Shown here one piece after another: positions 23,002-47,899 of a stretch of 47,899 nucleotides of DNA. The notes beneath the pieces were generated by a model. It saw only the letters and a list, made by a program, of their open reading frames with translations. It did not search any database and was not told the origin of the DNA. Location: the NCBI GenBank assembly GCA_010119095.1, contig SAAG01000004.1:1-47899 (forward strand), in the 5' to 3' direction. How positions within the stretch are numbered: the stretch's first letter is position 1; each line of letters starts with the position of its first letter. This DNA comes from Candidatus Altimarinota bacterium (lineage in GTDB: Bacteria; Patescibacteriota; Gracilibacteria; BD1-5; UBA6164). Made by a program: the position numbers and the translations under genes.

Positions 23002-26000
23002 ATGAATAAAAAATTTTTGTTTAAGAAGTTTTTGTCTTTTTTTGTTATTGTGTCAATTTTATCAAATCTATTGGTTCCAGTATATGCAGTTTCTACAAAT
23101 GGAAGTGCAAATCCATGGACTATGGAAAAAGCTGAACACTTAGCTAAAAGAGCATTGTTTTGAGTATCTCCTCAAACTGTACTTGATTTGTACAATGCTT
23201 GAAGTGCAACAAATGCAGTAAATCTACTTTTTCCTTCGGTAGCATGACCGGATAGAACTCAGTACAACCAGGAATTAACAGATTTTAAATGAACTAATTT
23301 CAATTCATGAGATACAAATACTATGAGAAAACTATATGCATTTAAGTATTATAGAGATCCTTATGAAGCAAAAATGAAATTGTTTTCTATGTTTGAAGAT
23401 CACTTTTCACTAGATAGAACATGAGCATGATCTGGATATATTGATTTTCCAGATGTAGAAAATCATTTTGATGTTTTACAATCTGAGACACTTTGAAATT
23501 TTAAGAGAATGGTAAAAAAAGTACTTTTTGATACAACAAAACCACAAAATAGTTATGCAATGTGAAAATACCTTGATTTACTAAACTGACCAAATAAAAA
23601 TTCTCCAAATGAAAACTATGCAAGGGAATTATTACAACTTTTCTTGATGCTAGAATATAAACCTTGGGAAGATGCAGAAACTGTTTGAGCAGAAAGAAAC
23701 TACTCTGAAGCAGATGTAGCAGCACTAGCAAAAATATTGACTTGATTTAGAGCAAATTGATGAGATAAAGTAGTATATTTTGACTACAATTATCACAATA
23801 CTTGATCAGCTATTACATTTTTGACTGGATCTCTAAAATCTGGAGACAATTTTCCTTTTTACAATACTGCTAGTTGAACTATAGATAATAACCTAATTAT
23901 AAGTTCAATAAATTGAAATAACTGACTAGCTGATAATACTATTGATTATATATTTTCAAAAAGAGAAGCAGAAATTGCAGATTTCTTAGCTTGGAAAATG
24001 CTTAGACACTATGTGCAAGAAAAACCAACTCAAAGTCAGATTGAAACTCTTGCTTCTGTAATCATATCAAACAATTTTGATATTTATCCTTCAGTAAAAT
24101 ATCTACTTGCATCTGATATGATGTATAGTGAGACTTCTATGAATTCACTTAAATATAAAAATCCCCTTGAAATAGCAATAGGGACTTTGAAATTACTTCA
24201 TTATAAAAATCCTAATGTAATTGATCCACTTGTAAATGATACAACACTTTTAACAACTTTATGATGGACCCCATACTATCCAGGAAGTATATTTTGAAGA
24301 GATTGATTTGATAATAATCTCAATTTTATGAATGCATATTTTCATAATCAGTGGTCTACTTACACTTCAAAAATAGCTTTCACATCTTGAACATGATACT
24401 ATGATTTAGCTGAATTGATTCCAGTAACAACAAAAACTAATACTTGAACTATAGCAGTAAAAACTAGTACTTGAAATACTTACTCTTGAAGTATTAATTT
24501 ATCAAATATCAGTATTACTTTAAACGAAAATGCTTTTGAATGATTGGTTGTTGCCCCAGCTTTAGCTCCTGCATTTTTTAGTGTATTAAGTAGTGATTTT
24601 GTTGAAGAAACTTGAACTGGTGATATTGATACTTGAACATGAACTATTGATACAGGGACTTGAGAAAAATCAACATGAACTACAGAAACTTGAACTTGAA
24701 CAGGTGATACATGATTAAGTGAAACTCCTCAAATTATATTTAGTGTATCTAGTAACGAATTTGTAGAGAAAACAGACCAAACTGAAGAAACATCTACTTG
24801 ATCTACGGATACTTCAACTTGAACTACAGAAGAAACACCAAAAGTACCTGAAGTACCAGAAATCCCACCTGCTCCTGAAACTCCTCAAACCACAGAAATT
24901 CCACCAGTTACAGAGTATTCAACTTGAACAACAGATTCTCCAATTTGATTAATCACTGACAAATTATTATCATTTTTGATTCCTACAGCAAATGCTTGAA
25001 TAGTGAATAATAATACTATTACTTTTGAAACAGGTACAGTAGTATTTCCAGATTTCTATATACTTACAAATTCAGGAAATATAATTAACCTAGAAGGAAC
25101 TTACGATTCACTAAATTGAAATCTAAGTATAGCATCTGGTAGCATGAGTTTTGGAACTTGATTTTATACTATAGCATCAAGTAGTTTTACTATTAATCCA
25201 GAATTTAACTTAACAAGAGATATAACTACAGATGAGATGATTATAGAGTTAGAAGACTATCTTTATCTATGAAAAAGGTTACCAACTTCAGTAAAAGATG
25301 AGATAAAAAATTATTTACTTAAAAATGAAGCCTGAGTAGATAGAAACTTTTTACCAAACAATACAGCTTACAGAAATAAATACATAAAAGCAGTAATTTC
25401 GATGATGCTTACACAACCTGAATATATAATGCTTAGCTGATATGATCAAGCTGAGACTATTGAAAACTCTTGAAGTAATCCAATAAACGATGCTAGTAAA
25501 AAGCTTATAATGATTGAACTTTATGGTTGATATGATTGGATGAACTGAGTTATTCCAAAATCTGATTTTGCATATTATCAAAATATCAGATGAGGCTTAG
25601 CAATAGACCCTTCTAATTTAGTAGATTTATGAAGTGTCTACTTAAATAAAAATCTAGAAAAACTTAAACCTTATTATGATAATTGAGAACTTAGGATCGT
25701 TAATAGAGTGTGAGCACCAAGCCATAGTAGATGACATGATACAGCTGCTATTCAAGTAGCTAGCCAAAAGGCATTACAGACAGTTTGAACACCATGACTT
25801 ATATGAGAATTGATTAAAAATGAATCAAATTATCTAAACAATATAGTTTTAGGGACTTCTAGACCTCCTATTTATACAAATGGTAGATACATAAATATCT
25901 GAGGTAGTTCAATAATGTATAAAAATAATTTAAGTACTCTAAATACAGCTGAAAAAACTCAGCAAGTTAATAGTTTGAGAAATATTCTGAAAAATAGAAA

Positions 26001-28740
26001 TTATCCACTTACTACAAAAACAGTTTTCAATAATTCTACAATTTTGGATGATGTAGCAAAAAGCTGACAAGAATCAGTTTGATATACTCTAAGTGGAAGA
26101 CTAAATTTTACAAATAATTTAATGATGAATAATCTTTGAATTACCTATTATGTACCTGGGGGTGGATGATATGATACACATTGAGATCAGTTAAAATCAG
26201 GGGTTTACAACTTAAATGATAGGACAAGAGATTTAGTAAGTGATATAACATATTTTTTTGATAAAGCAAAAGCAACTTGAAAAGATGTTACCATAGTTGT
26301 TTATAGTGAATTTGGTAGAACTCTAAAAGCAAATTGAACAATCTGAACTGATCACTGAGAAGGTGGTTGATACTTTATACTTACTTCAAACAATTCTCTT
26401 AAAACAGCATTACCAGATAAAGTTATCTGAAAATTGTCTCCAGAAAAAGAAATAGATGATTGGTTTGGTACAGGTATAGATTACAGATCTATTTATTCAA
26501 AGATTCTTACAAGTTTGTATAATATAGATGCAACAAATTACTTTTTTGCTCCATATAGACTAGATGATGATTTAAATACCACTATTCCAAATCCTGTATT
26601 TTTGAGAAGAGAAGTAAGACATTCTTCTACAAATAGTATGAATTTGGATTTTAAATTTATGTTTGAGGATAAAAATTATTTACCAAAAAATGCTTCATAT
26701 ATCAAGTTTTATTCTGGTGAAGATCCAAATAATCTGAAGCTTTATTCAAGGTGGAATATAGAAAACTATTCACTACAAAAAGATTGAAGTTATAAAGTTA
26801 ATTTTAACCTTACTAAACTAAGAAATTATTATTATAAAATCGAAATTGTTGATAATCAATACGATACTTATACTGCTACTTGAAGCTTTGTTGTGCCAAA
26901 TAAATTTGAATCAAATTCTACAAATCAAGTAATTCCTCTAGATACTGATAGTCTATTTGCAAAATACAACAATACTCAAGTTACTTGAAATACAAGTATA
27001 ACAAAACTGACTTTGTATGATAATTCAGGAACTACAGTTACAAATTCTTGAATAACTACATTTAGTTGAAGCTTTAAAACAATACCATTTAGTGGATGAA
27101 TAAATATGACTTTTGGGACAGGTGAAACATCAATTTCTACTCTGACAAATTCGTGAGTATGGAACTGAGGATTTGTGCTACCAAAATTTATAAACAAAAA
27201 TGAGTTTTTTAGCGAAGAGTCAGTATTTAACTGACAAAAATTAAAAAATCTAAATGTAGAAAAACTGCTAAAAGTATGAGCTGATACTCTATGAGTTTGA
27301 ATGCAACTAAATCAAGATGTGAAGATAGAAATACCAGTATCAAATACTACCTGAACTTATAAAATAGTAACCAGTGAAGATGGTTTAAACTGGACAGAAT
27401 TAGCAAGAAAAAATGAGACAGTTTTAAGTGGAAGTACTCTAGGGTTTTACACAAATAAATTTAGTTATTTTGCTTTAGTTGAATGAACAAATACTGTTGA
27501 CACAACACCAGATAATTTTGTATTTAATGATTTATGAAGTCAAGAATTAAATACAAGCTTAACTTCAAATGAGATAACAGTAACTGGAATAAATACAGGA
27601 GTTACACTAAGTATAAGTGTATGAGAATATAGTTTAAATAATTGAACATATTCTACAGCTAATGTAGTAGTAAATAATGGAGACAAGATAAAACTAAGAA
27701 GAACAAGTTCAACAAATTACAATACTTCTGTAAATACAATTTTAACTATTTCTGGAGTATCTGATACTTGGACTATAACTACAAAACAACAATCAGGAAC
27801 TACTACTGATTCTACTCCTTATAGTTTTGTATTCAATGATTTATCAAATCAAGAATTAAGCACAAGCTTAATCTCAAATGAGATAACAGTATCAGGGATA
27901 AATACATGAGTAACTCTAAGTATAAATGGTTGAGAATATAGTTTAAATAATTGAGCATATTCTACAGCTAATGTAGTAGTAAATAATGGAGACAAGATAA
28001 AACTAAGAAATAATAGTTCTGCAAGTTATAGTACAACAACAAATAATATTTTAACTATTTGATGAGTATCTGATACTTGGTATATTACAACAAAGCAACA
28101 ACAATCTTCATGATGAGGTGGTGGTTGATGAGGTGGATGATCATTATCAAAAGATTATTGTCCAGGATGAGATTATTCAAAAAGTTATTATGATAAAACT
28201 TGTGGTAAAAAACCAGCTACACAAACTGGAACAACTGTAGATGATAAAAAAGATGATGATAAAAAGAATGATACTGGTAACAATGGTAATAGTAACTGAA
28301 ATACAACTCAAGAGAAAAATAATGATATCGATAAATTGATTAACCATGATATAAAGCCTATTACTTATAAAGATAGATATGGTAATACTTATACTGCTAA
28401 AAAAATGCTAAATGGTAGATATGTACTATTTAATGCGAATGGAACATATGTAAATAAGATGTTTTTGAAACAATATGATATTATAAAGTATTTAAAAACA
28501 GTGAAAAAATCTACCAAAGTAGTAAAAAATGATGATTCAACAGATACAAATTATCAAGAAAAACCAGAAGATGCAAAGATTATGGATTCTTTTAAACCGA
28601 TTGTATTTTTTTCAAGATATAATGAGAGATACAAGGCAGTAAAAACTATTGATGGTAGATATATACTTATAAGAGAAGATTGAACTTATATAGATAGATT
28701 TTTTAGAAAACAATTTGAGATAATTACATATTTGAAGTAA
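23002..28740 (+). CDS. Giant secreted DUF1800-DUF1501 fusion protein with surface repeats
   Basis: 1912 residues. Signal peptide (1-31, ending PVYA). DUF1800 begins at once (EKAEHLAKRALFGVSPQT) and runs to about 480. It is interrupted by a Thr/Gly/Glu/Pro-rich stretch (about 530-655) and a beta-rich stretch, and its C-terminal part seems to resume near 735-815. DUF1501 follows (about 830-1180: YGGYDWMN, HSRGHDTAA, GGGGYDTHGD, YSEFGRTL, GTDHGEGGG), a family of the alkaline phosphatase superfamily. Then beta domains, two tandem ~105-residue repeats (about 1496-1705), a ten-Gly tract, a Cys-containing linker (CPGGDYSKSYYDKTC) and two C-terminal repeats of about 45 residues (YKDRYGNTYTAKK type). 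DUF1800 and DUF1501 are usually neighbouring genes; here they are one chain. The role is unknown; the layout suggests a large surface enzyme or scaffold. Confidence 0.9.
27490..28104 (+). repeat. Tandem ~105-residue coding repeat
   Basis: Two successive copies inside the DUF1800/DUF1501 gene, each starting with FVFNDL, passing EITVTGINTGVTLSI or near-identical, and including YSTANVVVNNGDKIKLR. The nucleotide copies are close to identical over long stretches, so the duplication is recent or kept uniform. GGA in one copy is replaced by TGA in the other (compare ATAAATACAGGAGTTACACT with ATAAATACATGAGTAACTCT). Confidence 0.9.
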
Positions 28741-36116: not shown

Positions 36117-36896
36117 ATGGTAGTTACAGCTGCACAAATAAAAGAACTAAGAGAAATTACATGAGTTTGAATGATGGAATGTAAAGATGCACTAGTTGCA
36201 ACTGATTGAGATATGGAAAAAGCTATGGAGGAACTAAGAAAAAAAGGTCTTTCAAAAGCTGCAAAAAAAGCAGATAGAGAGACATCAGAAGGATGTATAA
36301 AAATCGAAATAAACTGAGATAAATGTTATGTTGTATCTCTTACTTGTGAAACAGATTTCTTGGCTAAATCAGATGGTTTTCAAGGTCTTTTAAGTGAACT
36401 TATGGGTATGCTTAAAGCTGGAAAAACTACTGAAGAAATGGAACAAACAAAAAAAGAATCAGTTTTAAAACTTGGAGAAAATATGGTTTTAAAAGTTGCA
36501 AAAGTTATTTCTGGAGCAAAAATAGAATCATATGTTCATTCAAATGGTAAACTTGCTTCTGTTGTAGTATCTAAAAAAGCTGATACTGATGGGGAAAAAC
36601 TTAAACAAGTTGCTATGCATGTAACAGCTACTAACCCAGATTATCTAGCTACTTCAGACATTAGTGCTGAGGCAGTAGAAAAAGAAAAATCTATCCAAAT
36701 GGAGATTATGAAAAATGATCCAAAAATGGCTGGAAAACCAGAACAAGTACTTGAAAATATCTTAGCTTGAAAACTTAACAAGTTTAAAGAAGATATCACA
36801 TTACTTGAACAAGCATTTGTAGTTAATCCAGATTTAAAAGTTAAACAATTTATCTGAGAAGATACTTTAGAAGCTTTTTATAGATTTTCTATATAA
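36117..36896 (+). CDS. tsf: Elongation factor Ts
   Basis: 259 residues. UBA-like N-terminus with IKELREITGVGMMECKDAL, then LRKKGLSKAAKKADRETSEG near 40-59, the dimerisation part VSLTCETDFLAKSDGF near 73-88 and VAMHVTATNPDYL near 165-177. EF-Ts recycles EF-Tu by exchanging GDP. Length and motif order are normal although the C-terminal coiled coil is short. By my count 6 of 17 Gly codons are TGA. Confidence 0.96.
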
Positions 36897-36915
36897 TGAA
36901 TAATTAACAATTAAC

Positions 36916-36968
36916 AATTAATAATTAAGGATTTTGATTTTTATAATTATCTTCCTTAATTATTAATT
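36916..36968 (+). terminator. Inverted repeat after tsf
   Basis: 16-bp perfect arms (36916-36931 and 36953-36968). The surrounding TTAACAATTAACAATTAA and its reverse at 36978-36990 extend the symmetry. It is all A/T-rich and probably ends the tsf transcript before tRNA-Trp. Confidence 0.5.
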
Positions 36969-36997
36969 ATTCATTATTCATTGTTAATTAATAACTT

Positions 36998-37072
36998 ACC
37001 TCCATAGTTAATCGGCTATAACGCAGGACTCCAAATCCTGTATGCTAGGTTCGACTCCTAGTGGGGGTGCCA
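36998..37072 (+). tRNA. tRNA-Trp (CCA anticodon)
   Basis: Cloverleaf with acceptor ACCTCCA/TGGGGGT (one G-T pair), discriminator G, encoded CCA, anticodon stem CAGGA/TCCTG with loop CTCCAAA, and T arm CTAGG/CCTAG. The CCA anticodon reads UGG only, consistent with UGA being taken by Gly. No tRNA-Gly(UCA) is in this window. Confidence 0.93.
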
Positions 37073-38323: not shown

Positions 38324-38731
38324 ATGATTGATATAAATGATTCATGGTATAGAGTGAGTGTAAAAGCTCTTATTTTAAATGAAAAATGAGAGTTTTTGCT
38401 ATGTAAAGAAAGTAAATGAGTTTGGGATTTTCCAGGTTGATGATTAGATTACAATGAAAATCCAATAGATTGTTTGAAAAGAGAATTATTTGAAGAAATG
38501 TGACTAGAAACTGAAGAAATTATCGAAAAACCAGAATTTTTTATAACAGCATATAAAGAAAACAGTAAAACTAGGCCATATATTGCTAATATTTTTTATA
38601 AAGTTAAATTAAAAAACCTAAATTTCAAAGAATCTGATGAATGTATAGAAATATGATTTTTTGATAAGAAAAAAGTGTTAGAAATAAACTCTATCGAAAA
38701 TGTAAAACAATTTTTTAAAAAATATAATTAA
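38324..38731 (+). CDS. NUDIX hydrolase
   Basis: 135 residues. The Nudix box is complete: G-x5-E-x7-RE-L-x-EE-x-G-L, read as GGLDYNENPIDCLKRELFEE then MGLE near 44-67. VWDFPGGG precedes it. These enzymes hydrolyse nucleoside diphosphates linked to another group; the substrate cannot be read from sequence. The ATG at 38324 was chosen because the earlier ATG at 38316 is out of frame and quickly stops. It ends 7 bases before dnaJ and probably shares its transcript. Confidence 0.92.
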
Positions 38732-38738
38732 ATTTACT

Positions 38739-39842
38739 ATGTCCAATAAAGATTACTACAACACCCTTTGAGTTGATAAAAATGCAACTGACGATGAGCT
38801 GAAAAAAGCATACAGAAAGCTAGCTATGCAATATCATCCTGATAGAAATGGATGAGATAAAGAAGCAGAACATAAGTTTAAAGAGATCAATGAAGCTTAT
38901 GGAGTACTTTCTGATGCAGGAAAAAGAAGACAATATGATACATATTGAACTGTATGAAATTGAGGATTTTCTGGTGGTTGATTTTGAGTAGATTTTGACA
39001 TCTCAGATATATTTAACTCATTTTTCAATGGGGGAGAATGATTTTCAAGTGGATGAAGAAGAAAAAGACAAACATCATTTAGATGAGAAGATTTAGAATA
39101 CACTATTAAATTGGACCTAGAAACAAGTATCTACTGAGGAAAACAAAAGATAAAGTTTGATAGGATGGAAGAGTGTACAGACTGTAAATGAGAAGGATGA
39201 ACTTGAAAGAAAACTTGTGGTGATTGTCATGGAACAGGGTATGTAAAATACAGACAACAAAGTGTTTTCTGAGTAATAGAACATACAGGAGTTTGTGAAA
39301 AGTGTGAATGATCTGGAGAGACACTAGACCACCTATGTGGTACTTGTAAATGAAAAAAGAGAGTAAAAAAGACTATAGAACTAGAGATAAAAATCCCAGC
39401 TTGAATAGACAATGGTATGATTATCAAGATGACTTCAGAGTGAAATGACTGAATAAATACAAAAGCAAAATGAGATTTATATGTAAAATTTAAAGTTTCA
39501 CTAGAAGAAAAGTGACTAAAAAGAGATGGAGAAGATTTGTATTATGACCTAGAAGTGGATGTACTTGAAGCTATCTTGTGATGTGATAAAGAAATAGTAA
39601 TCCCAATCATCTGAAAAAGAACTATCAAAATTGCAGCCTGAACTCAAGTAGGAACAGTTATAAAGATTGGATGAGACGGAGTAAAACATGTAGAAAAAGA
39701 CAGCAAATGAGATTTATTTGTAAATCTAGACATAAAAATCCCAAAGAAACTAGCAAAAGACGAAAGAGAACTTTACGAACAAATAGCAACAGCAAAGAAT
39801 CTCAAAGTCTGAGGAAAAGGGATTTTTGATAAGTTGTTTTAG
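38739..39842 (+). CDS. dnaJ: Chaperone DnaJ
   Basis: 367 residues, canonical type I. J-domain with KDYYNTLGV at 4-12 and an intact HPD in QYHPDRN near 33-39, a Gly/Phe-rich region (about 75-110), and a zinc region with [24 protein letters not shown] and CGTCKGKK (about 147-210), although the fourth lacks the last Gly. The C-terminal substrate-binding domains follow ([19 protein letters not shown]). This is the standard Hsp40 for DnaK, in contrast to the divergent J-like protein at 3903. No dnaK or grpE lies beside it. Confidence 0.97.
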
Positions 39843-39884
39843 TTTTTTGTCGTTGGTATTCACAGTTACAAAATTATATATATT

Positions 39885-39914
39885 TTCTCTAGTTTAAAGC
39901 TAGAGAATTTTTTT
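39885..39914 (+). terminator. Terminator after dnaJ
   Basis: TTCTCTAG/CTAGAGAA, 7-base loop, seven T. Confidence 0.9.
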
Positions 39915-39924
39915 AATAAAAAAT

Positions 39925-39951
39925 TTGATTTAATAAAAATGAGTATATAAT
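39925..39951 (+). promoter_or_regulatory. Promoter of the exported-protein cluster
   Basis: TTGATT (39925-39930) and TATAAT (39946-39951), spacer 15 bases, 35 bases before the ATG at 39987. Confidence 0.45.
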
Positions 39952-39986
39952 ATAACCATTTTAGTTTATCATTAATGTATATTATT

Positions 39987-41204
39987 ATGAAAAAATTATT
40001 ATTTTTAAGTTTATTAATAGGTTTTATTTTTAATTTTCAAGTTTATGCAGATAATGTAGATTATCAAACTGATTATACACTCATAGATTGTCAAAATTGA
40101 GATGATTTAGGATGAGTTCCATTTGATTCATCAAAACCATATAAAACATTAAATGAATGAATTGAAAAAACTGTGGATTATATAAATAACAATGTTAATA
40201 CGGGGTCTTTATTATCACAAAGTTGAATAATTTTTAATATAAAAGTAAATTGTAGTCTACAAAAGCTATGATCAAATACTATAACAATAAATTTTGATTG
40301 AAATAATTATAAAAACTATTTGAAAATACAATGAATATGAGATAATTGATTGATTATAAGTGATTTAATTATTGATATTCCAAATCAAAAATGAAATATA
40401 ATATTTAATAATGCAAAATTTTTAAGTAATTCAGCAGGATATTACTTTGCATCAACTTATTGATCAATGAATTATTGAGTTAAAATAGAAGATTCATATA
40501 TTAAATTACTGCCATGAACACAATTATGACAAACTGCTGTTAGCTGTTATTGGAATTATGGAACTTATTGTAATTCATCAAATAATCCATATCAATATAT
40601 AAAAAATTCAACAATCGATTTAGAGATTAATTCAGGATACAATTTTTATGTTCCATTGATAATAAAAGATAGTAAAATAAACTTTAAAAATTTATATTCA
40701 TCTTGAGTATATGATATTAAATTTTCTGAAATTTGAGGTTTTGTATTATGATATGATTTTGATTTTTTTACTTTGATGTCTAATGAAGTAGATTTATGAT
40801 GAAATAATTTTAGAACAGAAAATACAAAAAATGCTTCGTTTATAAATAATAAATTCTCAAATTTTAATAATTTTTATTTAGGAGAATCTGATACAAACTT
40901 AAAATATGGTATTTTTATTAATAATTTATTTGAAAATGCAAATTCAATAGATATTTCTTATAATAGAAATATAATCAATAATGTATTTTCATGAGACTAT
41001 ATAGACACCTATGATATAAGAAATTTGAGAAAAAACTATAAATTAGATAATCTTTGAACTAAATGAATTTGATGGATTTTTCAAAAATTGAATGCTTTTG
41101 ATATGTTTAAATTAGATTATACTAGTGCTTCGTTGTATAAGGAAATTACATGACAAGATATCCCAACAAATTATAGTTCAGTTTATGCTATTTTTTCTCG
41201 GTAA
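39987..41204 (+). CDS. Secreted protein, probably parallel beta-helix
   Basis: 405 residues. Signal peptide (1-22, ending QVYA). After it DDLGGVPFDSSKPYKTLNEG and then many short strands with N, D, G and I ladders (LIISDLIIDIPN, IIFNNAKFLSNS) suggest the right-handed beta-helix of pectin-lyase-like proteins. I see no catalytic motif, so binding or surface display is as likely as an enzyme. First gene of a run of five, 5 bases before the next start. Confidence 0.75.
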
Positions 41205-41209
41205 AATAT

Positions 41210-43096
41210 ATGCTAAAAAAAATATTTTCATTAACAGTTTTTATTTTATGAACATTATTTTATAGTATTTCATATACTTATTTTTGTGATGGAAAAATTG
41301 ATTGAGAAAATTGTGAAACATGAAGTATAATTGAGGATATTGATCAAATTGATAGTTTTTCATCTGATTATTCTGATACTATAATAGGTTATCAATGAAA
41401 TAATTTCTTAAGTATCTTTAATGATGAATTAGAAACATCATTATGATATTTTTGAAATAAATATGATTATAATGAGTGAATAGAACTGTGGAGTACATTA
41501 GGTTTTTTATGAAACCAAAGAAAAGTTTTATCACCAGATTACCAAACTCCAGTATGATTATTTTGATTATATAAATGACAAACTTTAACTTTCAATAATA
41601 TTCAAGAAGAGAATAACTTTTTTGGCTATCCGCTAGTTAAGTTTGAACAAGATGATTCTGTTATAATAAATTGATGATCAAATAATAATATATATTGTTC
41701 ATCTCCAATACATGCAAAAAATACAAAAATTGAAATTAAAAGTAATTGATTGCATGATTATATTCGTTTATCATGGGATAATCCTTGAAAAGAGAAAATA
41801 AAGATTATAAGGATTTCCCCTGAATATAAGGAGTATTATATTGAAGAAAAATTTAATTACTTCGATGATTATGATATATTATCATGAAAAAAATATTCAT
41901 ATTTTGTAATTGTATATAATAATTGTAATAATAGCTGATTATATAGCGATTTAATAGATATAGACTATATATGAAGAGATATGTCAGCAAAACTCTATTT
42001 AAGTCGTATAAAGAATGACTTAGTTTTAAATATACCAAGTACAATGATATATGATAGTAAAACAAAAATAAGGATTGAGTGTAAAGATTATTTAGATACA
42101 TTTATTGATTCTTATTTAATAAATTACAAATATACTTTTGATATTAATGCATTTAAAAATTATTTTACTTGTGAAGCATCATTTTTTGATAATAATTGAA
42201 TCCTACAAAAGTCAGAAATATACATAAATAATCAGATAAAAGATTATTATATTAAAGAAAAACAAGCCTTAGATTTGATTTACAAGTGAGATAGTACTAA
42301 TCAAATATATAATTTATTGTATTTAAATGCTCCTAAATTTGATAGTTGAGCCTATCTAACTTATGGAAAGAGTTCACTTTATCTAATAAATATATTAGCA
42401 AAAACATATATTTCAGATGAAAAGTTAAGTTTTGATGCATTAAAAAGTAATTGATATTTACCACCAAATGTATCATTAGGAGATAGAATACCACAAGAAG
42501 ATTTAATAAAAATACTATTGTTTATAGAGAAAGATTTATCAAAATTTCATATAGAGATTTATGATTTTGTTAATGCTAATTTTTGAAATAAAAATTATAA
42601 TTTAGTAGTAAATGAAATCAATACTAATATTTATTATATAGACAAATTAAATGAATATTTAAAATCAAATGAAAATAAATTTGAAGGTTTATTAAATTGT
42701 ATTTCAAAAGAGTGATGTATGGATTTTGCTATAATTAAAACAAATACTGACATTGAGTTGGAAGAAAATGATATAAATACATATAAGGATTATATGAAAA
42801 TTCTTTATTTTAAATATTGAGAAAAATCATATAAAAAGTATAATTACACAAATGAAGATTATAATAATTTTATTGATATATTGGTTGAGAGTATAAGTAA
42901 TTGAGATGAATTTTATGACACTAAAATTAGTTATAATTCATTTAGAAATTTACAATATGAGATATTATTACATAAGAATTTACAAAAAAATATATCTTAT
43001 CTAACAGAAAAACATTTACAAAAAATTTTACAGATTTACTGAACTTCAAAAAAAGAAGAAATGATCTGGATTTTAAGGGATTTTTTGAGTAAATAA
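41210..43096 (+). CDS. Large exported protein of unknown function
   Basis: 628 residues. An N-terminal hydrophobic segment (about 5-22) followed by FCDGKIDGENCE looks like an export signal. Cys pairs occur at intervals. The central part (about 160-260) is beta-rich and may contain a fibronectin-like domain (IRLSWDNPGKEKIKIIRIS); the C-terminal half is helical and charged (YLTEKHLQKILQIYG). Not recognised. It is translated with the neighbouring exported proteins, spacing 5 bases upstream and 24 downstream. Confidence 0.75.
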
Positions 43097-43120
43097 TAAT
43101 TTAGTATTTAATTAATAAGC

Positions 43121-44749
43121 ATGATAAGAAAAATATTATTAATAATTATATTTATATTTCTGAATTTACTTTGAATTTTTTGTACATTTGCTTCTTCATT
43201 AGAGGATTACTATTATATTTATAAATCTAAATCTTATGATGAAAATATACAAAATATAGACTTTTCTCCTGATTTTAAAAGTTATAAGTTTACAATTTTT
43301 TCATGATGAAAAGAAATACTAAATATAAATTGAAATGAAATCAATAAATATGATAATATAAATAAATTTTTATTTTCCCCAAGTTGAAGTTGATATTCAT
43401 ATATAGCAATGATTAATTATAATTATGTTTTAGTAAAAGATTGAATAGAACATAATGATTATCAGCAAGTGTATGATATTAATTACTCAATTGATTGAAA
43501 AAGTTTTTCATATATAGCAGAAAAAAATGGAAAGAGCATTTTAGTAAAAGATTGAGTAGAAATTGATAAATACGATGGAATATCTGCTTTTCATTATCCA
43601 AAGGAAATAAAAGAAAGTTTTATATATATTACAATGAGAAATTGAAAATATATATTAATAAAAGATTGAATTGAAAGTAAAGAGTATAATAATATTTGAG
43701 AATATATATACTCTAATGATTTCAAAAATTTTGCATTTATAGCAAATAAAAAATGAAAACTAATATTAGTAAACAATTTAAAAAATGAATATTGAGATTA
43801 TGATAATATATATTATCCATTTTATTTATGAAAAGATATTTATTTTTTCTGAGAACAAAAAGGTAAGACTTATCTAGTTAAAAATTGAGTAAAAAGTATA
43901 GATTATGATTATTTAAAAAAAATTAGATGAGCAATTAATTGAAAATCTTTCATGTTTATAGCTGTCAAGGATTGAAAATATGTTGTAAATAAAAACTGAA
44001 AAGATATTTTAATTGTTCCATTCGAAGTAAAAAATTTAGAACTTTCATCAGATTGAAAAAGTTATGTTTTTTCTATAATTATAAAATGAAAACAAATTGT
44101 TATTAAGGATTGAAAAATATTATGAATATACAATGATAGGACTTTATTTAACTTCAACTATTGATTAACAAATAAAGAATATTCATTTATTGTATTAAAA
44201 GGTAACAAATATATTTTAGTAAAAGATTGATTAGAAATTGATAAATATGATAATGTAAATAGTTTTAGATATTCACCAGATAAGAAAAGTTATTCTTATG
44301 TGGCAGAAAGGAATTGAAAATTTTTTGTAGTAAAAGATTGAGTTGAAGGTAAGGAATATGATTCTATCAATACCTTTGATTTATGAATTTTATATTCAAA
44401 AAATTGAAATAGTTATTCTTATTTAGCAGAAAAAAATTGAAAGAGCATTTTAGTAAAAGATTGAGTTGAAATTGATAAATACGATGGAATTTGAAATTTT
44501 TTCTATCTATGAGATAGTTTTATATATTTTATTGGTATTTATTACAATTGATCTTTTGTAGTTGATGGTATTGAAAGTGAATCATATAAATGTATTGATA
44601 TTACTCCATTTCATACAATGTATTATAATTATGAAATGTATTCAGATTATTATATAAATTATTCAGAGGAATTAGATAAATGAAATTTTATAGGATTTAT
44701 AAGTTGCTATGAATGAAAAAATCAATTAATTAGATATATAAAAAAATAA
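43121..44749 (+). CDS. Exported repeat protein, WG/propeller-like
   Basis: 542 residues with an N-terminal signal or anchor (about 4-24). The rest is about nine irregular repeats of 45-55 residues with the core SYIAEKNGKSILVKDGVEID then KYDGI. Each unit is two or three beta strands with a K-[DN]-G turn, as in WG or TolB-like propeller repeats. Two copies (43517-43581 and 44426-44490) are almost identical at nucleotide level, and one Gly is GGA in the first and TGA in the second. A protein- or ligand-binding surface propeller is likely. Confidence 0.8.
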
Positions 44750-44773
44750 TTTAACTTTTTAATAATAAAATGT

Positions 44774-45664
44774 ATGAAAATATTAAAAGAAACAACTTGA
44801 GAAAGAATAAGTAAAAATATAGGACTATTTTTGTTTATGATGTTGTGAGTAATAGGGATATTCATTTTAATATGAAAATTTTATCATTGGGATAGGATAA
44901 GTGAATATATATATATACCATTTGCATTTACAACTGATTGAATATTTAGTAATGATTGGATGTTTGTTTCAAGTATGCTATATAGTATTGTATGAATATG
45001 ATCGATAATATATTTTTTTCAAGATAAATATATAAAGTGAAACAAAAAAAGAACAAATAAATGGTATTATAAAATGGTAACATTAACAGTAGTATGAGTA
45101 TATTGATTGTTTTACATAACAAATCCATGGTATACATTACAAACTCATCCAAGATTATTTTTATATCAAGACTGAAAAAATATAACAAATAAAGAGATAT
45201 ATTTTTTCTTAACAGAGAGATATGGTTTTAAATCTGATTTATATAAACCATTTAAAACATTGGAGGATAGTATAGAAGGATTGGAGTTTGCGATGAAAAT
45301 AAAAGAACCTTCACTATATAGATTAGTTTTTGAAGATATTGAAAAATTTTGATATAATAATTTGTTAAAAAGGTATAATGATGATTCTTTTCAATTATAT
45401 TTTTTGAATTATATACTTTTTACAAGCACATTTTATGATTGAAAAATAAATAATTTAGATGACAGTTTAACATATTTAAAAAATATACTTTCAATTGCAA
45501 AAAATAATGAAATTATAAATTTATCCAATGAGTTATTAAATAAATTGAATTATGCTTCAAAATTAAATGAGAAAGAAATAAAACTATTAATGGATACTTA
45601 TTTGAAAGAGTATTTAGATAAAATTTTTAATACAAAAACAATAGATAAATCAATATTTCTATAA
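44774..45664 (+). CDS. Membrane protein of unknown function
   Basis: 296 residues with three membrane helices in the first 125 residues (about 18-37, 60-82 and 99-117) and a helical, charged C-terminal domain of about 170 residues. The ATG at 44774 was chosen because the ATG at 44770 is out of frame and stops after 14 codons. I do not recognise it. It sits between the propeller-repeat gene (24 bases) and the hydrolase gene (12 bases) and may be the membrane part of a cell-surface complex made by this cluster. Confidence 0.75.
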
Positions 45665-45676
45665 TTAATTTAATCA

Positions 45677-47899
45677 ATGAAAAAAGTATTATCAATATTT
45701 TTAATAATATTAGTTCTATCGTGAAAAAATTTTGCAGATTTTGAAACTAATGAAAGAGATATATTGTCAATAGAATGAAATCTATGTCAAAAAATACAAG
45801 AAAAAGATATCCCGACTATACTTGTACCTGGGATATTAGCTTCATGGTATAGTGAGGAATGATATAAAGAAACAGGAAAACAAGTAAAAAGATGGATTCC
45901 AGATCCTATAAATCATACTTATGATACTTTGATATATACATTTAAACAAAATTGATATAAGATTAAAGATGTATTTTATCAGGATGAATTTACTTTAAGT
46001 ACAAGTTCATCTTGATCTAAATACATATGAAGAAATCCTAAAAATGGATTGTATGTATTTGGTTATGATTGGAAAAAGGATAATAAGATAACAGCAACAC
46101 TTTTAACTCAGCTAATTTGACTTATACTTAGAGATTACGAATATCATAATAAATGTAATATATGAAAAGTGAATATAGTATCCCATTCTATGTGATGACT
46201 CGTTGCTAGAGCTATGCTTGAGGATATGTGTGTGGAAAAATGATATCAAAATTGATTAATGAAAATAATATTAAGAGATGATAATAATAAAATTACATAC
46301 TTTGATTCAAAAAAAGAAATGAATTGAAAAATACAAAATTTTGATTCATACCCCTGTCAAAACCCTTATTCATCATCAAATATTTCAAAGGACATCAAAG
46401 TAAACAAATTAATTACTATTGCTACACCTCATAGATGATCTCCAAAAGCTTTTGCGATATGGGAAAAGTGAGATATAGAGATGACAGATTGATTTATGGT
46501 ATGATACTTTTGAATAAAAAATCAACTCAATGTTAGTTCTGATTTGGGATTATATAAACTGATTCATTGATATGATAATAAAGTTCCTAATGGGGTAGTA
46601 ACATTAGGTCAACTACTTCCAGATATAAATAATGATAATGACTATAATAATAAAAAACTTAAATACTTGTATAAAGAAAAAAAAGAAGTTACACTAGATA
46701 AAACTAATAAATTAAATCAGTTTTATGATACAGAAGATAATAAATATTCAGATTTAATAGATTCTACAAATAATTTTTATTCTATTAAAATAGAAAATTA
46801 TCCACAAAATAGTTTTTTGGAAGAATTAAATAAAAAAGAAAATATAGATAAAATGATGAAAAAAATAGAAAAAAAATATATTTCTTATTATTCTAAAATT
46901 ACATGAAATAATGGATTAAATAATATATTTAATATAGAATTATGAGATAAAACAGAGAAATATATAACGATAGCATGATCAAGAGAGTTAATAACTTATG
47001 ATGAGACATATAAACACAAATGACAAGATATATATAGTTATTATATAGAAGATAGCTGAAAAAATTATTATTTAATAAGTAAAGTATTAAGAAATCAATC
47101 ATGATTGTGATGAGATTGAACTGTTCCAACAAATAATTTAAAACTTGTTCCAAATGATAGTACAGATTGAAAAGAATTTAGTAATTCTAATTTTGAATCT
47201 AGGGAAATAAAATGCAATAAAAGTAATCCAACAAACAACAATTATAAAACAATATATTCTACTGATAATGAATATAATGAACCAAAATTATGAATTTGAT
47301 CATTCTCAAAGTGAAATATAATTACAAATGATATTTCACTAAATAATGAACTATATCCATATATTTGATTCTGAGAAATAGACAAATATGAAGTTTGTAG
47401 TCATACAAATATGCCATTTGCAACAAGTTGAAAAATAATTGAAGATTTGTTAGATTTGAAAGATACTGAATTTAATAAGAGATACTGATTATTAAGTAAT
47501 TTTTGATATGCAGATTATACATATGAAGAAAAAGGGATTATAATTGATGAAAATAGATGAATAAAAAACAATAATATATTATCTTGGTTTTATGATAAAA
47601 ATAGATTTAATACAAAAATTTCTGACAATATTTTAAAAAAAGATAACCCAATTAATCGTATTAGATTTTCTTTAGATTTACAAACAACTGATGCTTTATT
47701 TGAATACGACATCCTCTCTCCAATCGACATAATGATTACAGACGAACAGTGAAGAAGAATCTGAATAGATAGAGATACAGGTATGATTGTAAATGAAATT
47801 CCTGGAGCTTGGACTAGTGGTAGAGCTGGAGAAAGTGGAGAAAGAGAGTTTTTCTTGATTCCTTGAAAAACTGGAGAACCAATTAATCATAAAATTGAA
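45677..47899 (+). CDS. Secreted lipase-like alpha/beta hydrolase (3' end outside window)
   Basis: 741 codons are visible and the gene continues past the edge. Signal peptide (1-21, ending KNFA). IPTILVPGILASWY near 44-57 is the oxyanion strand of LCAT/PGAP1-type lipases, VNIVSHSMGGLVARAML near 168-184 holds the nucleophile Ser174, and ITIATPHRGSP near 250-260 is the usual TPH-GS motif. A GDGTVP motif near 480-485 is typical just before the catalytic His. The later part includes SPIDIMITDEQGRRIGID then VNEIPGAW, a domain often attached to such lipases. Esterase or lipase activity outside the cytoplasm is likely. Confidence 0.88.

What the first reader, a model, noticed from the sequence alone, without database searches (positions are those of the whole stretch)
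39987..47899. Five-gene run of exported and membrane proteins with a lipase at its end
Spacing of 5-24 bases links a beta-helix-like protein, a large exported protein, a propeller-repeat protein, a three-helix membrane protein and a secreted lipase-like hydrolase. CPR of this type live attached to other cells; a surface complex with a binding helix, a propeller and a lipase could act on a partner cell's envelope. The host-contact role is speculation; the clustering is not.
Basis: inference. Interest (0 to 1): 0.55.

Follow-up and report, generated by a model that had tools for sequence, protein, structure and literature searches.

The report
Secreted lipase paired with membrane partner
A tiny, probably host-dependent bacterium carries a row of genes ending in a secreted fat-cutting enzyme that regularly comes with a membrane protein varying in step with it, which could be how the cell protects its own membrane from the enzyme.

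Summary
The five-gene run is real in genetic code 25 (TGA=Gly): gaps of 5, 24, 24 and 12 bases, one terminator-like site in front, none between. The fifth gene is cut by the contig end. Relatives split the run into two units plus one addition. Unit A (genes 1-2) is adjacent in 6 genomes including this one. Unit B is gene 4, a membrane protein, directly upstream of the lipase: 8 of 8 lipase genes with more than 250 bases in front have it. Same-genus G043 has genes 1, 2, 4, 5 in this order without gene 3. Units A and B co-occur (7 of 8 lipase genomes hold gene 1; 2 of 40 others), and in four of those seven they clearly lie apart. The new point: in a genome with two lipase copies the lipase ends are homogenised, while partner and lipase core share another, older history (AU tests). 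Cognate pairs look like this. Most likely the partner is membrane-anchored self-protection against a secreted LCAT-like lipase aimed at other cells' lipids; a lipase-specific foldase is the main rival. Function is inferred. New variant of a known kind.

The parts
39885..39907 (+). terminator-like hairpin in front of the run
   Evidence: only terminator-like site of the scan of 38600-47899
39987..41204 (+). gene 1, exported protein of an unnamed family (alternative ATG at 39975)
   Evidence: no Pfam match in 7 members above cut-off
41210..43096 (+). gene 2, exported protein with N-terminal GYxGN repeats 19 residues apart (residues 60, 79, 98)
   Evidence: relative next to gene 1 in 6 genomes
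43121..44749 (+). gene 3, exported protein with a 37-residue repeat; an addition not found in the G043 run
44745..44831 (+). 5' edge of the lipase unit, shared at 90% with contig C20 of the same genome, beyond which the two diverge
44774..45664 (+). gene 4, membrane partner of the lipase; C-terminal domain inferred to lie outside
45677..47899 (+). gene 5, secreted LCAT/PGAP1-type lipase, cut by the contig end
46187..46189 (+). codon of the putative nucleophile Ser171 (HSMGG)
   Evidence: present in 10 of 10 aligned members
47114..47116 (+). codon of the putative acid Asp480 (GGDGTVP)
   Evidence: present in 10 of 10 aligned members
47402..47404 (+). codon of the putative His576
   Evidence: present in 10 of 10 aligned members
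47654..47899 (+). start of the conserved C-terminal domain of the lipase
   Evidence: window residues 660-740 conserved in 10 members; homogenised within G174

Best explanation
Gene 5 is an exported serine lipase of the LCAT/PGAP1 type that cuts ester lipids outside the cell, most likely membrane phospholipids of neighbouring or host cells. Gene 4 is its dedicated partner: anchored in the producer's membrane with its C-terminal domain outside, it recognises the core of the matching lipase and keeps it from attacking the producer; it works like an immunity protein. Copies of the pair recombine through conserved ends while partner and lipase core stay matched. Genes 1-2 are exported surface proteins inferred to help attachment or display; gene 3 is a later addition. 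Shown: the pair, its linkage, the mosaic history, the motifs. Inferred: export route, substrate, binding, protection, target cell.
For: Partner directly upstream of 8 of 8 lipase genes with more than 250 bases in front, in 3 genera and behind different upstream genes. A convincing partner occurs in 7 of 8 lipase genomes and in 0 of the 40 others of the family, one weak hit with stops apart. Two copies in G174: partner body and lipase core join G174a with G072b (99/99 each) and reject the same-genome pair (p 3e-50 and 0.003), while the lipase C-terminal part joins the same-genome pair (100/100) and rejects the other (p 9e-5) (site counts). Charged loops place the C-terminal domain outside, where the lipase goes. 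Ser, Asp and His are kept in 10 of 10. Partner copies without their own lipase next to them, L020_0 and L138_0, are usual for immunity genes (recalled) and odd for a foldase. A published neighbour-lineage predator is thought to use a secreted phospholipase (PMC8080830, passages).
Against: No activity, binding or structure shown; both models were too poor. Adjacent genes share history by linkage; what counters this is only the differing history of the lipase start between them, which is weakly supported (p 0.045 and 0.068). The contrast rests on one genome, G174, with weaker parallels in G072 and the own genome. Over all 28 locus pairs, partner identity correlates with core 1 best (0.85) but with core 2 (0.63) no better than with the two ends (0.76, 0.65). 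G174b with G175 is supported in the partner but unresolved in the core. The lipase of G072 C26 shows no partner end in its 247 upstream bases. Both unpaired partners lie at or near contig ends, so a lipase could be missed.
Confidence: 0.4

Rival explanations
1. The partner is a lipase-specific foldase or export chaperone: membrane-anchored with an outside domain, needed to fold the matching lipase core, working like the Lif/LipB foldases of Pseudomonas and Burkholderia (recalled).
For: Near-strict pairing, membrane anchor, outside domain and co-inheritance with the lipase core fit equally well.
Against: Partner precedes the lipase and usually has three helices, unlike the recalled foldases; unpaired and tandem partner copies exist; no foldase model among Pfam matches of 8 members at E up to 1; distant CPR lipases do without it in the 6 opened loci that have upstream sequence.
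Confidence: 0.27
2. The pair is a lipid-scavenging device: the lipase releases lysolipids or fatty acids from host debris and the partner tethers it or helps uptake, with no protective role.
For: CPR bacteria are held to take lipids from others and are enriched in lysolipids (PMC7242380, passages); the membrane partner could be an anchor.
Against: Does not by itself explain allele matching between partner and lipase core.
Confidence: 0.18
3. Linkage and relatedness alone: an ordinary secreted lipase with an unrelated membrane gene next to it, inherited together in a few related genomes.
For: Adjacent genes share history by linkage; only 8 of 48 family genomes carry the lipase, in 3 of 20 genera; co-occurrence was not corrected for the tree.
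Against: 8 of 8 adjacency in 3 genera with different upstream neighbours; presence and absence of lipase and gene 1 go together within two genera: G125, G135 and G172 lack both; partner and core keep together across a homogenised lipase start.
Confidence: 0.12

Closest known systems
Secreted phospholipase proposed for Vampirococcus lugosii (Absconditabacteria; PMC8080830, passages)
   Same: a lipid-cutting enzyme predicted to be secreted by a related predatory CPR bacterium
   Different: whether the two enzymes are homologous was not tested; the passages I saw mention no membrane partner of the phospholipase
T6SS Tle lipase effectors with Tli immunity proteins
   Same: lipase next to a gene that is thought to neutralise it; weak Tle3 similarity in 4 of 10 members (best E 0.0018) and a weak PDB match, 4r1d, E 0.04 (that this is Tle4 is recalled)
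   Different: signal-like start instead of T6SS loading; partner is a multi-helix membrane protein; similarity is to the general hydrolase fold
Bdellovibrio self-protection protein Bd3460 against its own predatory endopeptidases (mentioned in PMC8080830, passage)
   Same: a predator's guard against its own secreted hydrolase
   Different: ankyrin protein against a peptidoglycan enzyme, not a membrane protein against a lipase
Lipase-specific foldases (Lif/LipB; recalled)
   Same: secreted lipase with an adjacent membrane-anchored partner whose main domain is outside
   Different: foldase follows the lipase and has one helix (recalled); here the partner precedes it, usually has three, and occurs in unpaired copies
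Polymorphic toxin systems (recalled)
   Same: several copies per genome with conserved ends, variable active part and variable neighbour gene
   Different: the variable part is the middle of the lipase, not the C-terminal tip, and the partner gene comes first

Membership tests
LCAT/PGAP1-type lipases (PF02450, PF07819) | profile score above the curated cut-off | tested here: met
   P0005: LCAT 31 bits (cut-off 21), PGAP1 31.4 (cut-off 24.3); among 10 members at E up to 0.01 PGAP1 matches 10, LCAT 8
LCAT/PGAP1-type lipases (PF02450, PF07819) | Ser nucleophile, Asp and His | tested here: met
   Ser171, Asp480, His576 in 10 of 10; their geometry not tested (model too poor)
LCAT/PGAP1-type lipases (PF02450, PF07819) | lipase or acyltransferase activity | not testable with these tools
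   needs an assay
T6SS Tle effectors | Tle model above cut-off | tested here: not met
   Tle3 15.7 and 17.1 bits against 27 in two members
T6SS Tle effectors | T6SS genes in the genome | not tested
   no search was made
Lipase-specific foldases | sequence membership in a foldase family | tested here: not met
   no such model among Pfam matches at E up to 1 for 8 partner members
Lipase-specific foldases | needed for lipase folding | not testable with these tools
   needs co-expression
Effector with immunity protein / polymorphic toxin | adjacent dedicated partner gene | tested here: met
   8 of 8 with enough upstream sequence; 2 further lipase genes not decidable
Effector with immunity protein / polymorphic toxin | partner and toxic part co-vary while the rest is conserved | tested here: met
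   G174 copies, trees and site counts; weaker over all 28 locus pairs
Effector with immunity protein / polymorphic toxin | variable toxin at the C-terminal tip | tested here: not met
   the variable part is the centre; the C-terminal domain is conserved
Effector with immunity protein / polymorphic toxin | toxicity neutralised by the partner | not testable with these tools
   needs an experiment

The most novel reading that the evidence does not exclude
Some Gracilibacteria carry a multi-copy, polymorphic lipase weapon with matched membrane immunity: partner and lipase core are exchanged as a unit between conserved ends, so that sibling epibionts compete for the same host cell with allele-specific lipases, and the surface proteins of genes 1-2, replaced in two genomes by an RHS giant, serve as its contact arm.
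Probability: 0.22. Interest if true: 0.8.

Novelty: new variant of a known kind. Interest (0 to 1): 0.52.

Why it matters
How CPR bacteria take lipids from other cells, and how a single-membrane cell survives a lipase that it secretes, are open questions. A lipase with a co-inherited membrane partner gives a two-gene system that can be expressed and tested in ordinary laboratory strains. The families of genes 1, 2 and 4 match no Pfam family above its cut-off in the members' tables that I saw.

Tried and rejected
Considered and rejected: one five-part complex (gene 3 is not linked to the lipase elsewhere). Standard code and TAG=Q. 'Electron-transfer subunit TmcD' for gene 3: 41.4 bits against a cut-off of 440. 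Holin for gene 4: 16.4 bits against 25.4. Beta-helix for gene 1: no support, but a poor single-sequence model does not exclude it.

Led nowhere: both structure models were too poor to use (P0001 mean pLDDT 36.6; lipase 30.2), so no fold search was made. PDB sequence searches gave nothing firm. The single genome-contig scan gave one named relative, Candidatus Gracilibacteria isolate C10_metabat.bin.32_sub; its contig has the length of G072 C26 (9059). Papers: search for 'candidate phyla radiation' with 'lipase' and 'immunity protein' gave 0; 'polymorphic toxin' with 'Patescibacteria' gave 4 and 'Gracilibacteria' with 'Rhs' gave 4, seen as listings; some searches were also seen as listings; PMC11452946, PMC8080830, PMC9530719 and PMC7242380 were seen as passages. 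I found no description of this pair; the library holds only open papers.

Rows dropped before counts: the lipases of G173 (contig begins inside the gene) and G072 C26 (247 bases upstream, no partner end in them) are left out of the 8-of-8 count. The weak partner hits in G176 (stops inside) and G110 are not counted as partners. The trees used 8 loci; G072a and G173 were left out because no partner is known. The single-protein gene 1 search gave 10 of 48 including a weak G161 hit; I use the profile's 9 of 48. Co-occurrence is not corrected for relatedness. Distant lipase relatives: 36 of 379 Patescibacteria, this genome among them; I opened 8 loci from 7 genomes, 2 of which begin inside the lipase. 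Sites in lipase residues 101-200 are uninformative (2:1:4).
Full report
What is there. The window is a complete contig (47899 bases) of a 1.53 Mb draft genome in 220 contigs, so nothing beyond 47899 is held. It reads in code 25, TGA as glycine. Five head-to-tail frames follow a terminator-like hairpin, with gaps of 5, 24, 24 and 12 bases. Promoter-like matches are at chance level, so the operon rests on spacing and on the lack of terminator-like sites inside.

What the proteins are. Gene 5 is a lipase of the LCAT/PGAP1 type with a hydrophobic signal-like start (no signal predictor was run) and Ser, Asp and His present in 10 of 10 aligned members. Seven complete relatives run from 801 to 1178 residues. 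Gene 4 is a membrane protein; 4 of 8 aligned members show three helices at the threshold used, with a charged inner loop and an outer C-terminal domain. Gene 3 has a 37-residue period, score 0.077 against a shuffle maximum of -0.415. Gene 2 begins with GYxGN-type repeats 19 residues apart. Genes 1, 2 and 4 match no Pfam family above its cut-off.

Synteny. In same-genus G043 genes 1, 2, 4 and 5 follow each other with no gene 3. Genes 1 and 2 are adjacent in the window, G043, G175, G174, G072 and G167, and decayed in G165. In G168 and G145 a giant protein follows gene 1 instead: RHS repeats by Pfam in G168 (E 1e-93), and G145 is 48% identical to it. Both carry GYxGN repeats before the RHS part. 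The gene 1 frame of G145 holds one TAA and that of G165 three stops. The lipase is found in 8 of 48 genomes of the family, as 10 genes, in 3 of 20 genera. Gene 4 relatives stand directly upstream in 8 of 8 that have more than 250 bases in front. Upstream neighbours differ: gene 3 in the window, gene 2 in G043, three other genes in G167, G175 and G174. Lipase and gene 1 occur together in 7 genomes, lipase alone in 1, gene 1 alone in 2, neither in 38 (Fisher p 3.7e-6, not corrected for the tree). In G167, G174, G072 and G175 the two clearly lie apart; in G145 both contigs are cut where they could meet. In a wider class sample 7 of 242 genomes had a lipase hit, 5 in this family and 2 weak ones elsewhere. 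Distant lipases exist in 36 of 379 Patescibacteria, this genome included; none of the 8 loci opened has a gene 4 relative, but 2 of them begin inside the lipase.

The mosaic. G174 has two copies of the pair. They are identical over the 87 bases held before the partner's start and its first 40 bases; further on the partner is 52-65% identical per 100 bases of DNA. The first 100 lipase residues are 96% identical, the core 64% and 51% in two parts, the C-terminal domain 90%. With G072b and G175 for comparison, sites supporting the allele pairing, the same-genome pairing and the third pairing are 46:3:1 in the partner body, 1:8:0 in lipase 1-100, 2:1:4 in 101-200, 17:4:3 in 201-600 and 4:26:1 in 601-835. 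Trees agree: partner and lipase core join G174a with G072b (99/99 each) and reject the same-genome pair (p 3e-50 and 0.003). The C-terminal part joins the same-genome pair (100/100) and rejects G174a with G072b (p 9e-5). The lipase start joins the same-genome pair (95/91) and rejects G174a with G072b only weakly (p 0.045). G174b with G175 is supported in the partner (95/96) and unresolved in the core (p 0.47). In G072, contigs C28 and C10 share 276 bases at 97% up to the first partner codons and then diverge; the window and contig C20 of its own genome share 87 bases at 90% in the same place. C20 has different genes upstream, pilin-like by their N-terminal look only; strain mixing in a draft genome cannot be excluded.

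Reading. Lipase ends homogenised within a genome, with partner and core kept together, is expected if the partner must fit the lipase core. Self-protection and a dedicated foldase both predict it. Partner copies without a lipase directly after them (L020_0 in G072; L138_0 in the own genome, with 249 bases to the contig end) tilt me to self-protection. Against: over all 28 locus pairs the rank correlation with the partner is 0.85 for core 1, 0.76 for the lipase start, 0.65 for the C-terminal domain and 0.63 for core 2, so it does not single out the whole core; and the C26 lipase of G072 shows no partner end in 247 bases. The published setting is favourable: a secreted phospholipase is proposed for predatory Vampirococcus (PMC8080830, passages), Gracilibacteria are held to be host-dependent (PMC11452946, passages), and lysolipids are enriched in CPR-rich fractions (PMC7242380, passages). 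Attachment and target are inference.

Verdict. What remains is a two-unit system whose core is a lipase regularly paired with a membrane partner. It is a new variant of a known kind, of moderate interest and readily testable.

Noticed in passing
L061 1-4935 (G168) and L062 1-4485 (G145): A giant RHS-repeat protein follows the gene 1 relative where gene 2 stands elsewhere; it carries the same GYxGN repeats as gene 2 before its RHS part.
   Followed up: partly
L022 6230-6379 (contig C20 of the window's genome): Start of a second gene 4-like gene at a contig end, behind genes with pilin-like N-termini; its first 87 aligned bases match the window at 90%, then it diverges.
   Followed up: partly
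L138 250-1221 (contig C119 of the window's genome): A complete, distant gene 4 relative with no lipase start in the 249 bases to the contig end.
   Followed up: partly
window 47899; L022 6379; L139 and L140 start; L085 12546; L087 4116: Contigs of four draft genomes (own, G072, G174, G173) end inside or just beside lipase or partner genes, as expected if near-identical copies break the assembly.
   Followed up: no
L019 7823-11137 and L084 6112-9648: The long C-terminal extension of the lipase in G043 and G167 looks like YD repeats by eye; Pfam gave no RHS match for the G043 protein and the blast match of the G167 protein was weak, E 0.67.
   Followed up: partly
window 27489-28101: Tandem duplication of about 304 bases at 83% identity inside the large frame 23002-28740.
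   Followed up: no
window 36894-36990: A 97-base self-complementary stretch (76%) directly before the tRNA-Trp gene at 36998.
   Followed up: no
L020 357-566, L021 2692-2905 and 8027-8109, L140 near its start: Short intergenic repeats shared between contigs of G072 around the lipase cassettes; they may help recombination or merely break assembly.
   Followed up: no
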